Of a stretch of 38,893 nt of DNA, positions 2,538 through 6,003 are shown one piece after another (positions within the stretch are counted from its first letter, which is position 1; every line of letters begins with the position of its first letter). The translations under genes were made by a program, and so were the position numbers. The notes under the pieces are model-generated. The model was not told the DNA's origin and ran no database searches. It was given only the letters and a program-made list of their open reading frames with translations. Source of the DNA: Microcaldota archaeon (GTDB lineage: Archaea > Micrarchaeota > Micrarchaeia > Anstonellales > J096); contig JALWQW010000023.1 in assembly GCA_026982895.1 (NCBI GenBank), forward strand, positions 1-38,893. The letters run 5' to 3'.

Positions 2538-4520
2538 TTAATCACCCTCAAAGCCTAAATATTGCATTTTGAAATCATAAAAGTAATCAGCCCTATTGCC
2601 GTCTTCATCTTCAACAACCACATAGAAGGCATAATCTGCTGTTCTATTTTTAGCGTTGGCTATTCTTTCCTTAGCAGCCAAATCTTTTAGCTTGCCTTGC
2701 ATAGAACCCACCAAGCCATCAGCCAAATCTTGCGTAATATCCGCGGCTTGTCCTATTACAGGAACTTCATCCACAACTAAGCTTACAGCCCCTATAGTTG
2801 CTTTGCCGCCTTCTAATGCAAAGTCTAATGAGCGATACGCCATTTCCTTGTATGTCTTAGCATTAACAACACCATCTATTCCCTGGGCCATATTTTTCAT
2901 ATTACCCCACAAACCAGTCACTCCTTTATACCACTTGATGCCAGGCGCCACATATCCAAAGAACTTAGCTGCTTTTCCAGCCAATTTCTCGCCAGCGTAT
3001 TCAGCACCTTTCTCAGCACTGGTAAGTGCAACGCTTGTCGCTGTGCCCGTCAAAACACCAGTCATCTCCCTCGCCATTATAATTTCATCTTTGTTTAAGC
3101 CACGAGCGGGGCTCATCCATTGAACAACCTCATTCTTCTTATCTGAATCGAATAAAATAACATTATTGCTTGAAGCTGGCCTAAAGCGAGATTCAGATTT
3201 CCACTGCCCGCCATAGTTGCGAAGGTAATATTTGAAATGAGAACTGTCGGGGTCGTCAACTTGAATATAAACATTGTGCAATGCGTAAGCTTTAGCAGGA
3301 TTAGGAGATATCTTAACAGAAGTTATTTTGGGCATAGGCGATTGAAGCATAATTTGTGCGTTTGTCTGCGTAGACCAATCGTCGCTGTCATCGTGTTTTG
3401 AAGCAGTTACAGTAACATCGAGTGTTAATGGAAAATCGTCGTAATACATGCTTTTTATTTCTTTTATGGAGGGCAATTTTAGCGTGCCTACATATTCTCC
3501 ATTGGCATCTGTATATCTAATGGCATCTCTGAAGCCCCATTTCCCTAAAACACCTGTGTTGTGTGGGTCGTCTATTCTTATGTGCAATTTAGCCCCTTTA
3601 ACGACAGTTCCATTGTCATAGCGTAAATCCACCTGTATCCTATCCTGGGCGTTGTCCTTCAACAAAACAGCAGGTTTCTCTATAGTTAAATATATATTCG
3701 GCGCCTCTGTGTTGACAACCTTTTCATTACATTTATTTGAAGAGGCATTGCAGCCATTATCACACTCAAATGTGTAATAGTAGCACTGACCATCCTCGCT
3801 GTTGCAATAACCATCATAATAATAAGTGCCATCTTCGCAATAATACTCTTTGCATTCAACATTAGCGCATTTATCACCTTCATTTCCTTGTTCAGCGCAT
3901 GCAGTCCCTTCTGCATTACAACCATTTTGGCATTTAACTGCTTTATAATTACATTGGCCACTATACTCATCGAACTCTCCTTGATAGTAGTAAGTGCTAA
4001 CGCCTGTATTCGAGTCATATAAACAACGATCTTCACAGTATGCATCATAATTACTATCTCCAGTGTCACCTATATCCCCACCACCATAAGCAGGAGTGGT
4101 ATCCTCTTCGTCAGATTCAGGGTAATTATAATAGCAAATATCCTGACAACTCTTCAAAGCATTCTTCGCTGCAACCTGCGCCTCCCCTTTACAACAATTT
4201 TGCATGGCGGCGTTCCTTGTACAATCTGTGCCACCAGCTTGTTGGCATTCCCACAATTGGACGACACATCTAGCGTATCTCCCAGATTCACCATTCCATG
4301 TGCCTGTCCTCACCCTAGGACAATTGCTGGATGTGACTGCCTCATAGTATGAGCCGCTGTTTGCCATTTGTATTGCTTCTTTAAGGGCAGCTTCGTATTC
4401 CTGATTACATTCATATAAACATTGATTCAATTGGCTATTGCTGCCAGTATTACTGGTATGAGAAAGGACAAATGAAACGCTAATTAATAGCAATAAAGCT
4501 AAAAGTGGCAAATACTTCAT
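2538..4520 (-). CDS. Large secreted cysteine-rich surface protein
   Basis: Signal peptide; N-terminal Cys-rich region, two Cys/Tyr-rich repeats (CEDRCLYDSNTG...CQNGCNAEGTAC and CKEYYCEDGTYYYDGYC...CDNGCNASSNKC), Ig-like middle, Gly/Ala-rich hydrophobic segment. Confidence 0.65.
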   Translation of the reverse strand: MKYLPLLALLLLISVSFVLSHTSNTGSNSQLNQCLYECNQEYEAALKEAIQMANSGSYYEAVTSSNCPRVRTGTWNGESGRYARCVVQLWECQQAGGTDCTRNAAMQNCCKGEAQVAAKNALKSCQDICYYNYPESDEEDTTPAYGGGDIGDTGDSNYDAYCEDRCLYDSNTGVSTYYYQGEFDEYSGQCNYKAVKCQNGCNAEGTACAEQGNEGDKCANVECKEYYCEDGTYYYDGYCNSEDGQCYYYTFECDNGCNASSNKCNEKVVNTEAPNIYLTIEKPAVLLKDNAQDRIQVDLRYDNGTVVKGAKLHIRIDDPHNTGVLGKWGFRDAIRYTDANGEYVGTLKLPSIKEIKSMYYDDFPLTLDVTVTASKHDDSDDWSTQTNAQIMLQSPMPKITSVKISPNPAKAYALHNVYIQVDDPDSSHFKYYLRNYGGQWKSESRFRPASSNNVILFDSDKKNEVVQWMSPARGLNKDEIIMAREMTGVLTGTATSVALTSAEKGAEYAGEKLAGKAAKFFGYVAPGIKWYKGVTGLWGNMKNMAQGIDGVVNAKTYKEMAYRSLDFALEGGKATIGAVSLVVDEVPVIGQAADITQDLADGLVGSMQGKLKDLAAKERIANAKNRTADYAFYVVVEDEDGNRADYFYDFKMQYLGFEGD

Positions 4521-4582
4521 AAGAAAATTAAAATAGTAATATTAATAAAGGCTTCCGTGAGAGGAGGTGGGTTTCGGTAAAG

Positions 4583-4942
4583 ATGTATCAAGCTATAAAG
4601 GAGGGGGTTAAGGCACAGGTTAATAAAAGGATACAATCAAAGTTAAGCATGTTATCAGAAATCCCAAAAGGCTTCGATAAGGTTAAGGAAAAGCTCGGTG
4701 AGATGAGCGACGCGGAGTTGGCAAGACTCGGTTTAATAGCAGAGCTCGACGCAATAAACCTCTACGAACAGCTGGCAGCGAATGCCAAAGACCCTCTTGT
4801 AAAAAAGATGTTTTTAGACATAGCATATGAAGAGAAAGAGCACCTCGGCGAATTTATGGAGCTCTTAAAGCGCCTCGACCCATCACAAATAAAAGCATTA
4901 GAAGATGGTGCTAATGAAGTAAAGGAAGAAGCAAAGGAGTAA
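4583..4942 (+). CDS. Ferritin-like di-iron protein resembling encapsulin-associated ferritin (EncFtn)
   Basis: AELDAINLYEQLAANAKDPLVKKMFLDIAYEEKEHLGEFMELLKRLDPSQ: single ExxxxxY...ExxH half-ferritin hairpin. Confidence 0.75.
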   Translation: MYQAIKEGVKAQVNKRIQSKLSMLSEIPKGFDKVKEKLGEMSDAELARLGLIAELDAINLYEQLAANAKDPLVKKMFLDIAYEEKEHLGEFMELLKRLDPSQIKALEDGANEVKEEAKE

Positions 4943-4952
4943 AAGGGGAAAT

Positions 4953-5294
4953 ATGAAGATTAGCTCAACAATAAAAAGCGCAGATTGGAAGACAGAGAAA
5001 CACACGCCGATTGTAGAAGTTTTTACTGAAGAAGACATCTATAGAGTAGAAGTAAGCGTTGGCAAGGAGATTCCCCACCCAAATACAGCAGAGCACCATA
5101 TAGCTTGGATAGAGGTTTTCTTTATGGAGGAAGGTAAAGAAACAGCACTGCCTGTCGGTAAAATTCAGTTTACAGGGCATGGCGAGGCTGGCCTTACAGA
5201 GCCACGCGCGACCCTTTACTTCAAAACAGACAAAAAAGGCAAATTTTATGCTCTAGCGTACTGCAATATGCATGGATTATGGGAAAGCCAATGA
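4953..5294 (+). CDS. Superoxide reductase (neelaredoxin/desulfoferrodoxin type)
   Basis: EKHTPIVEV, GKEIPHPNTAEHHIAWIEVFF and YCNMHGLWE metal-site motifs. Confidence 0.92.
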   Translation: MKISSTIKSADWKTEKHTPIVEVFTEEDIYRVEVSVGKEIPHPNTAEHHIAWIEVFFMEEGKETALPVGKIQFTGHGEAGLTEPRATLYFKTDKKGKFYALAYCNMHGLWESQ

Positions 5295-5340: not shown

Positions 5341-6003
5341 ATGAAATTGCGATTAGAAACACGCTATCAAAAGTTAAATGCAGAGAAGCTTAAAGAGGGC
5401 TTTAAGAAGAGTGGAAAAGAGTTCAAAGAGTATTTAGAGAAGTTAGGAAGGGAAAGAGAATTAAGGGAAAAAGCAGCGATGTTAGAGGACAAGCTGCCAA
5501 AAAATATAAAAGGTATAGTTAAGCCCATCCAAAACATTATCTCTAAAATATCGACATTATACCCAAACGGTGGCCTGTCTGATAGAGCATATAACCTTCT
5601 AAGGTATAAAGCATACAAAGTGCTTAGATACAGCATTATAGAATACGCGCTTGACAATGGCTGCGACCCTACTGGATGCACAGAAGAAGGAGCTATGAAT
5701 TCTGTAGATGTTATGGGAATCAATGAGGAGAGATTCAGAAACCATTTGTACGAAATAATGGAAATCATAAAAGAGTCTCCTATTTACAAAAACGCCAAAA
5801 CATCGAGCGAAAAGGTGCATGTATTCACAGACATGTTTGATTTGGCATTAACGAAAGTAATAGAGCAATATGAAGCTCATGGAATGAAGATTGATGAGAT
5901 ATTACTCGCCATAAAGAAAGCCTACCAAAGTAAGGATGTTAGATGTGTAGAACAGACAGAGAGGAGATTAGATTTAATATTCCAAATAATAAAAGACCTA
6001 TAA
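5341..6003 (+). CDS. Conserved hypothetical helical protein
   Basis: ORF 5272-6003; the start at 5341 (MKLRLETRYQ) avoids overlap with the upstream SOR gene. Confidence 0.6.
   Translation: MKLRLETRYQKLNAEKLKEGFKKSGKEFKEYLEKLGRERELREKAAMLEDKLPKNIKGIVKPIQNIISKISTLYPNGGLSDRAYNLLRYKAYKVLRYSIIEYALDNGCDPTGCTEEGAMNSVDVMGINEERFRNHLYEIMEIIKESPIYKNAKTSSEKVHVFTDMFDLALTKVIEQYEAHGMKIDEILLAIKKAYQSKDVRCVEQTERRLDLIFQIIKDL

What the first reader, a model, noticed from the sequence alone, without database searches (positions are those of the whole stretch)
4583..5294. Stand-alone encapsulin-type ferritin paired with superoxide reductase, no shell gene nearby
The 119-aa protein carries the half-ferritin hairpin AELDAINLYEQLAANAKDPLVKKMFLDIAYEEKEHLGEFMELLKRLDPSQ. 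From memory this strongly resembles the N-terminal ferritin-like domain fused to the Pyrococcus furiosus encapsulin (AELDAINLYEQM...REEKAHVGEFMALL). Here it is unfused, has an extra N-terminal amphipathic extension of about 40 aa, lies 10 bp upstream of a superoxide reductase gene, and has no HK97-fold shell gene in the window. This could be a shell-free iron-oxidising/superoxide-detoxifying module, or cargo for an encapsulin encoded elsewhere.
Basis: partly seen in the sequence, partly recalled or inferred. Interest (0 to 1): 0.66.

Follow-up and report, generated by a model that had tools for sequence, protein, structure and literature searches.

The report
Shell-free encapsulin-type ferritin with SOR
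A tiny-genome archaeon carries the iron-oxidising protein that normally works inside a protein shell (encapsulin), but it has no shell gene and pairs the protein in an operon with a superoxide-removing enzyme; the same protein type also turns up, unnoticed, in tailed phages.

Summary
ORF 4583-4942 is an EncFtn: top sequence and fold hits are the P. furiosus encapsulin ferritin domain, and all ferroxidase residues are present. A complete-looking superoxide reductase (SOR) follows after 10 bp. Three corrections. (1) The N-terminal 'extension' is 22 aa and occurs in none of 15 orthologs, which start at the next Met (4649). (2) No encapsulin exceeds its cut-off in any of 301 genomes of the phylum, of which 14 carry this EncFtn type, so 'cargo for a shell elsewhere' is very unlikely. 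(3) The pairing with SOR is conserved: 5 of 16 loci, overlapping by 4 bp in three, with two origins on the tree; peroxiredoxin or rubrerythrin sits directly upstream in four loci. Best reading: a cytosolic shell-free EncFtn ferroxidase working with SOR against superoxide, peroxide and free Fe2+ in a cell without canonical ferritin or rubredoxin. How oxidised iron stays soluble is unknown, and a peroxidase role is a live rival. Shell-less short EncFtns are already known, so this is a new variant of a known kind. By-product: about 30 distinct EncFtn-like proteins on viral contigs with no known PHROG family, several with T4-type capsid-targeting-like leaders.

The parts
4583..4942 (+). Stand-alone EncFtn-type ferritin gene, longest ORF (119 aa)
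4649..4942 (+). Core EncFtn (97 aa) from the start codon that all orthologs use (MLSEIP...)
   Evidence: collinear with P. furiosus MLSINP...
4583..4648 (+). 22-codon upstream extension, lineage-specific or a start miscall; AF2 makes it a helix with block-mean pLDDT 67-86
   Evidence: absent from 15 orthologs; model
4562..4569 (+). Shine-Dalgarno-like AGGAGGTG, 13 nt before ATG 4583
4742..4744 (+). Codon of ferroxidase ligand Glu32 (core numbering)
   Evidence: invariant column in A1 and in phage relatives; Glu32 in R. rubrum EncFtn
4763..4765 (+). Codon of Tyr39 near the di-iron site
4832..4834 (+). Codon of ferroxidase ligand Glu62
4841..4843 (+). Codon of ferroxidase ligand His65 (ExxH)
4953..5294 (+). 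1Fe superoxide reductase (neelaredoxin type), 113 aa; E15-K16 motif, ligands His17, His42, His48, Cys104, His107
   Evidence: Pfam Desulfoferrodox 3.4e-32; TIGR00332 above cut-off; solved SORs 2hvb 1.1e-45 and 1do6 2e-38; motif positions
4521..4582 (.). 62-bp divergent intergenic region between the EncFtn-SOR pair and a secreted-looking protein gene on the minus strand

Best explanation
The locus encodes a cytosolic, shell-free EncFtn and a superoxide reductase, made as one two-gene unit. SHOWN by sequence: EncFtn family, complete di-iron ligand set, complete SOR active site, no encapsulin, conserved gene pair. INFERRED: the EncFtn core forms the helix-hairpin dimers and D5 ring seen in its relatives; SOR reduces superoxide to H2O2; the EncFtn di-iron sites oxidise Fe2+ with that H2O2 (or O2), removing both Fenton reactants at once, much as Dps does, without being a large iron store. 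Ferric iron probably stays bound in small amounts on the ring, or is passed on or re-reduced and exported; the genome holds a rubrerythrin-VIT1 iron-transporter-like gene and no canonical ferritin over cut-off.
For: EncFtn identity: 1.7e-20; EncFtns rank above rubrerythrins and other ferritin-like chains; fold; EncB_fam best NCBIfam model. Ligands Glu32/Tyr39/Glu62/His65 invariant, the metal-site residues of R. rubrum EncFtn, where mutation of Glu32, Glu62 and His65 affects assembly and activity (PMC5012862). No shell. Conserved coupling to SOR: adjacent in window, G003, L009, L010 and G021, with -4, -4, -4 and 0 bp spacing outside the window; co-occurrence 6 of 14 EncFtn genomes versus 18 of 287 others, Fisher p=2.7e-4. 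Peroxide-removing partners next door: peroxiredoxin in L009, L010, G010; rubrerythrin in G021. No canonical ferritin over cut-off in G000, G001, G301, G302; Rbr-VIT1 fusion in own genome.
Against: Isolated R. rubrum EncFtn oxidises iron slowly, precipitates with excess iron and does not store it without the shell (PMC5012862), so a shell-free EncFtn has an unsolved iron-disposal problem. Eleven of 16 EncFtn loci are not next to SOR. The Fisher test ignores shared ancestry; the tree gives only about two independent pairings. H2O2 as oxidant is untested here, and the ferroxidase mechanism of EncFtns is stated to be unknown. G003, G021, G031 and G101 have canonical ferritin too.
Confidence: 0.6

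Rival explanations
1. Rubrerythrin-like peroxidase: the symmetric di-iron site reduces the H2O2 made by SOR with electrons from ferredoxin or another donor, without storing iron.
For: E-x6-Y ... ExxH pattern resembles erythrins (own knowledge); rubredoxin-free Rbr-like peroxidases exist (ferriperoxin, PMC3317640); H2O2 is the product of the neighbour SOR; in G021 EncFtn sits between rubrerythrin and desulfoferrodoxin.
Against: Sequence and fold are nearer EncFtn ferroxidases than rubrerythrins; three other loci place a peroxiredoxin next to it, and the own genome has a peroxiredoxin, so a peroxidase is already present; no rubredoxin in 14 of 16 EncFtn genomes.
Confidence: 0.25
2. Cargo of an encapsulin that the 88%-complete assembly misses, or of the host's encapsulin.
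For: Nearest characterised relative is fused to an encapsulin shell; own assembly incomplete.
Against: 0 of 301 phylum genomes over cut-off, including all 14 that carry this EncFtn, plus 0 of 2; no C-terminal targeting peptide of the known types in any ortholog.
Confidence: 0.04
3. Degenerate fragment of a fused EncFtn-encapsulin, kept by drift.
For: High similarity to the fused domain.
Against: Intact in 16 genomes, with 48-82% identity to the window protein and invariant ligands; no shell remnant downstream; same short length everywhere.
Confidence: 0.02
4. Small iron chaperone or buffer that binds Fe2+/Fe3+ and metallates the neighbouring SOR (an Fe enzyme).
For: Tight gene coupling with an iron enzyme in five loci; the R. 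rubrum EncFtn ring binds up to about 48 Fe.
Against: Most EncFtn loci lack an adjacent SOR, and the conserved Glu/Glu/His/Tyr set is that of a redox centre.
Confidence: 0.09

Closest known systems
Pyrococcus furiosus fusion EncFtn domain (PFC_05175; PDB 5n5e, 2e0z)
   Same: 51% identity over the core; same start (MLSxxP), helices, di-iron ligands and C-terminal GxxEV motif
   Different: The P. furiosus domain is the N-terminus of an encapsulin shell protein; here it is free-standing in a genome and phylum without shells, and paired with SOR
Short bacterial EncFtns, 's-FLP' (Nitrosomonas europaea NE0167, PDB 3k6c)
   Same: About 95 aa, no clear targeting peptide, shell association unknown; the existing precedent for a free EncFtn (PMC11202242)
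   Different: Distant in sequence; bacterial; no SOR pairing reported in the papers read
Encapsulated ferritins with targeting peptide (R. rubrum Rru_A0973, H. ochraceum, M. xanthus EncB/EncC)
   Same: Fold and ligands; Glu32, Tyr39, Glu62, His65 numbering coincides with R. rubrum
   Different: They carry a C-terminal targeting peptide and are housed in a shell
Rubrerythrin / ferriperoxin (Rbr-like peroxidases)
   Same: Di-iron four-helix chemistry, E-x6-Y and ExxH motifs, SOR neighbourhood
   Different: Those are complete four-helix bundles per chain or domain-swapped pair; here half a bundle, closest to EncFtn
Neelaredoxin-type 1Fe superoxide reductase (Pyrococcus)
   Same: Gene 2 has the full ligand set and EK motif
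   Different: No rubredoxin gene found in the own genome, so its electron donor is unknown

Membership tests
EncFtn (encapsulated-ferritin) family | Sequence similarity to EncFtn above other ferritin-like proteins | tested here: met
   EncFtn chains rank first by sequence and fold (in one search the P. furiosus hit is partly by construction; it is not)
EncFtn family | Curated NCBIfam threshold (EncB_fam, 90 bits) | tested here: not met
   78.7-79.5 bits for the window protein: best model but below cut-off; Pfam PF22277 EncFtn-like is above its cut-off (33.5 vs 27)
EncFtn family | Glu32, Glu62, His65 (ExxH) and Tyr39 | tested here: met
   invariant in the 10 rows of A1 and in the phage relatives
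EncFtn family | Two main helices, no complete four-helix bundle in one chain | tested here: met
   AF2 model helices 43-67, 71-98, 100-118, mean pLDDT 89
EncFtn family | D5 decamer and ferroxidase activity | not testable with these tools
   needs protein; only monomer prediction available
Encapsulin cargo (FLP-TP) | C-terminal targeting peptide | tested here: not met
   C-termini end a few residues after GxxEV in all orthologs; consensus from PMC11202242
Encapsulin cargo (FLP-TP) | Encapsulin gene in the genome | tested here: not met
   with positive controls ringing in 3 named genomes
Fusion-FLP encapsulin | Shell domain fused C-terminally | tested here: not met
   stop at 4942 followed by SOR
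s-FLP (short EncFtn without targeting peptide) | About 95 aa, EncFtn fold, no targeting peptide | tested here: met
   97-aa core; class described in PMC11202242
Rubrerythrin | Four-helix di-iron domain plus rubredoxin-like domain | tested here: not met
   half bundle only; no rubredoxin domain; the PF02915 hit also occurs on true EncFtn
Superoxide reductase (1Fe) | His4Cys iron site and EK motif | tested here: met
   E15 K16, H17, H42, H48, C104, H107

The most novel reading that the evidence does not exclude
The P. furiosus-type EncFtn is a shell-independent enzyme module. In these archaea it forms, with SOR, a two-step pathway in which SOR's H2O2 is consumed by shell-free EncFtn-catalysed Fe2+ oxidation. 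The same module has been recruited as an encapsulin fusion in Thermococcales and as a head-targeted internal protein in T4-like phages, whose HK97-fold capsids would play the part of the encapsulin shell.
Probability: 0.25. Interest if true: 0.75.

Novelty: new variant of a known kind. Interest (0 to 1): 0.5.

Why it matters
EncFtn is described as an enzyme that cannot handle its ferric product without an encapsulin shell. A clade of archaea that keeps the enzyme conserved, has no shell, and ties it to superoxide reductase makes the question 'what does EncFtn do without a shell' directly testable, and suggests that the enzyme is a detoxifier first and a storage device only when housed. It also offers a stand-alone relative of the fused archaeal form for asking which came first.

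Tried and rejected
Ordinary rubrerythrin fragment: rejected, the Pfam hit does not discriminate. Encapsulin elsewhere: rejected; weak sub-cut-off PF04454 matches in G020, G280 and G281 are fragments of 54-69 positions. N-terminal targeting peptide: not supported. Direct search of viral contigs with the single protein found nothing; with the alignment it found the phage set. No match in plasmid or INPHARED phage records. Literature: no paper in the held library joins encapsulin with superoxide reductase and ferritin, or encapsulin with DPANN. One Pfam call failed on coordinates and was redone. The tree cannot say whether the fused or the free form is older: the P. furiosus row sits in an unresolved fork. 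The phage-leader regular expression was chosen after seeing some leaders, so its p-value is only indicative.

Full report
WHAT IS THERE. The window lies in a 1.01-Mb, 88%-complete archaeal genome. Its named relatives are Micrarchaeota/Diapherotrites genomes; NCBI now places Candidatus Micrarchaeia under Microcaldota. ORF 4583-4942 (119 aa) is followed 10 bp later by ORF 4953-5294 (113 aa). The second is a 1Fe superoxide reductase with E15-K16, H17, H42, H48, C104 and H107 present. The first matches the EncFtn domain of P. furiosus encapsulin best (1.7e-20), then M. xanthus EncB/EncC, N. europaea NE0167 and others; generic ferritin-like chains come lower. Its AlphaFold model (mean pLDDT 89) matches 5n5e at rmsd 0.8 over 72 columns, then EncB, EncC, NE0167 and R. 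rubrum EncFtn.

RUBRERYTHRIN OR ENCFTN. Pfam's Rubrerythrin model scores a little above EncFtn-like on the window protein (39.3 vs 33.5 bits). The control settles it: the genuine P. furiosus EncFtn behaves the same (35.9 vs 29.3). NCBIfam's EncB_fam is matched by every member tested, though the window protein stays below that model's curated cut-off (79 vs 90). With the start at 4649 the ligands fall at Glu32, Tyr39, Glu62 and His65, the very numbers of R. rubrum EncFtn, and all are invariant.

THE N-TERMINUS. Orthologs start at the position of window Met23 (4649), with M[ML]S.IP or close to it, like P. furiosus MLSINP. In G001, of the same genus, an in-frame TAA lies just upstream; G021 also has a stop just upstream. 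In the window a perfect AGGAGGTG lies 13 nt before 4583 and nothing comparable before 4649. The 22-residue extension is therefore a miscall or specific to this lineage; it is not a conserved targeting element.

NO SHELL. PF04454 gives nothing over its cut-off in the own genome, in 59 relatives, in 301 genomes of the phylum, or in the two genomes behind L009/L010, with positive controls ringing. In the same 301 genomes the EncFtn profile finds 14 close orthologs (E<1e-30) and a second, weaker set. Three of four members of the weaker set that I tested score 100 bits or more with PF22277, so short EncFtn-like proteins without shells are more common in this phylum than this one gene.

THE SOR PAIR IS CONSERVED. 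EncFtn and SOR are adjacent in the window, G003, L009, L010 and G021; overlaps are 4 bp in three of them and the genes abut in G021. Flanking genes differ, except that peroxiredoxin precedes the pair in L009 and L010; it also precedes EncFtn in G010, and rubrerythrin precedes it in G021. SOR occurs in 24 of 301 genomes and in 6 of the 14 EncFtn genomes (odds ratio 11, p=2.7e-4, not corrected for ancestry). On the tree four of the five pairs fall in one well-supported clade of five and the fifth (G021, a desulfoferrodoxin-type SOR) lies apart, so there are about two independent origins. In G001, inside that clade, the pair is broken: its SOR match is a partial one about 50 kb away. Related clusters without EncFtn: peroxiredoxin beside SOR in G031 and a PF00210 ferritin beside SOR in G101.

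CELL CONTEXT. The own genome has no canonical ferritin over cut-off, no rubredoxin found, one peroxiredoxin, and a rubrerythrin-VIT1 fusion resembling iron transporters. G003, G021, G031 and G101 do have canonical ferritin, so EncFtn is not simply a ferritin substitute.

MECHANISM. Established: SOR yields H2O2 (own knowledge of the enzyme family); R. rubrum EncFtn is a ferroxidase whose isolated ring binds tens of iron ions and precipitates with excess (PMC5012862). Inferred: SOR's product and free Fe2+ are removed together at the EncFtn di-iron sites. The weak step is the fate of ferric iron without a shell. A peroxidase role like that of rubredoxin-free ferriperoxin (PMC3317640) is the chief rival.

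COMPARISON AND NOVELTY. Short EncFtns lacking a targeting peptide are a described class, mostly bacterial, of unclear encapsulation (PMC11202242); fused forms are archaeal (PMC8346489). What is new here is an archaeal, fusion-type EncFtn standing free in shell-less genomes with a conserved SOR partner. I found no description of it in the held library, which lacks most subscription papers. I therefore call it a new variant of a known kind.

PHAGE RELATIVES (noticed on the way). Alignment-based scans of IMG/VR gave 26 and 40 loci, partly overlapping, with EncFtn-like proteins 35-59% identical to P. furiosus and most with the same ligand positions. Neighbours tested include baseplate wedge, tail sheath, sheath stabiliser, tail tube, ribonucleotide reductase and clamp loader genes. 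They match no PHROG well and, for the two tested, no INPHARED record. Several have a 10-25-residue leader ending in [LI]xE just before the core (MKKTLNFDDFLNE|TLSTIPG; MDKLLFEELNRFRQLNE|ITSAVP; MKKIKETLNE|IFVG), and in some contigs unrelated neighbours carry very similar leaders. T4 internal head proteins use a 10-residue capsid-targeting sequence that gp21 cuts after L/I-x-E (PMC9026906). A leader pattern is five times commoner at N-termini than at internal Met in these contigs (24/430 vs 18/1604; pattern chosen after the fact). They are thus candidate internal head proteins: EncFtn inside an HK97-fold capsid, a parallel to the encapsulin. This is a lead, not a result about the window.

Noticed in passing
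L074-L137 (e.g. L100:10001-10315, L110:7077-7439, L121:9959-10285, L129:9980-10303): EncFtn-like proteins on IMG/VR tailed-phage contigs, several with T4-type capsid-targeting-like leaders ending in [LI]xE right before the EncFtn core; leaders shared with unrelated neighbouring ORFs in some contigs. Candidate virion-internal ferroxidases.
   Followed up: partly
L123:8849-11626, L116:8180-10249, L122:5006-6112: EncFtn-like domain inside larger phage proteins: with a NUDIX domain (925 and 689 aa) and fused to DUF2213 (369 aa, cut at the contig end).
   Followed up: partly
L059, L063, L042, L060 (genomes G218, G192, G189, G289): A second group of short EncFtn-like proteins in the same phylum; three of the four tested score 100 bits or more with Pfam EncFtn-like PF22277 (L060 44 bits), also without any encapsulin.
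   Followed up: partly
L018:1468-2337 (own genome, contig C6): Rubrerythrin domain fused to a VIT1 membrane transporter, a candidate iron/manganese exporter.
   Followed up: no
G101:C12:28293-29293: A PF00210-type ferritin gene beside a superoxide reductase gene, so SOR recurs next to ferritin-family proteins of another kind.
   Followed up: no
G031:C23:56122-57056: Peroxiredoxin gene next to a superoxide reductase gene; the EncFtn of this genome is elsewhere, near genes that look like a metal ABC transporter and a Fur-like regulator.
   Followed up: no
L057:2749-3093, L058:123-467: Intermediate EncFtn-like protein (two genomes with the same local sequence) convergent with a gene whose protein looks like a cytochrome b.
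   Followed up: no
window 2538-4520 (-): 660-aa secreted-looking protein with Cys-rich stretches, no Pfam hit, divergent from the EncFtn-SOR pair.
   Followed up: no
window 5341-6003 (+): 220-aa protein of unknown family directly after SOR; not found next to EncFtn in the relatives read.
   Followed up: no
PDB 9viw_A residues 230-302: A 306-aa chain named 'Bacterioferritin' matches the EncFtn core in its C-terminal part.
   Followed up: no
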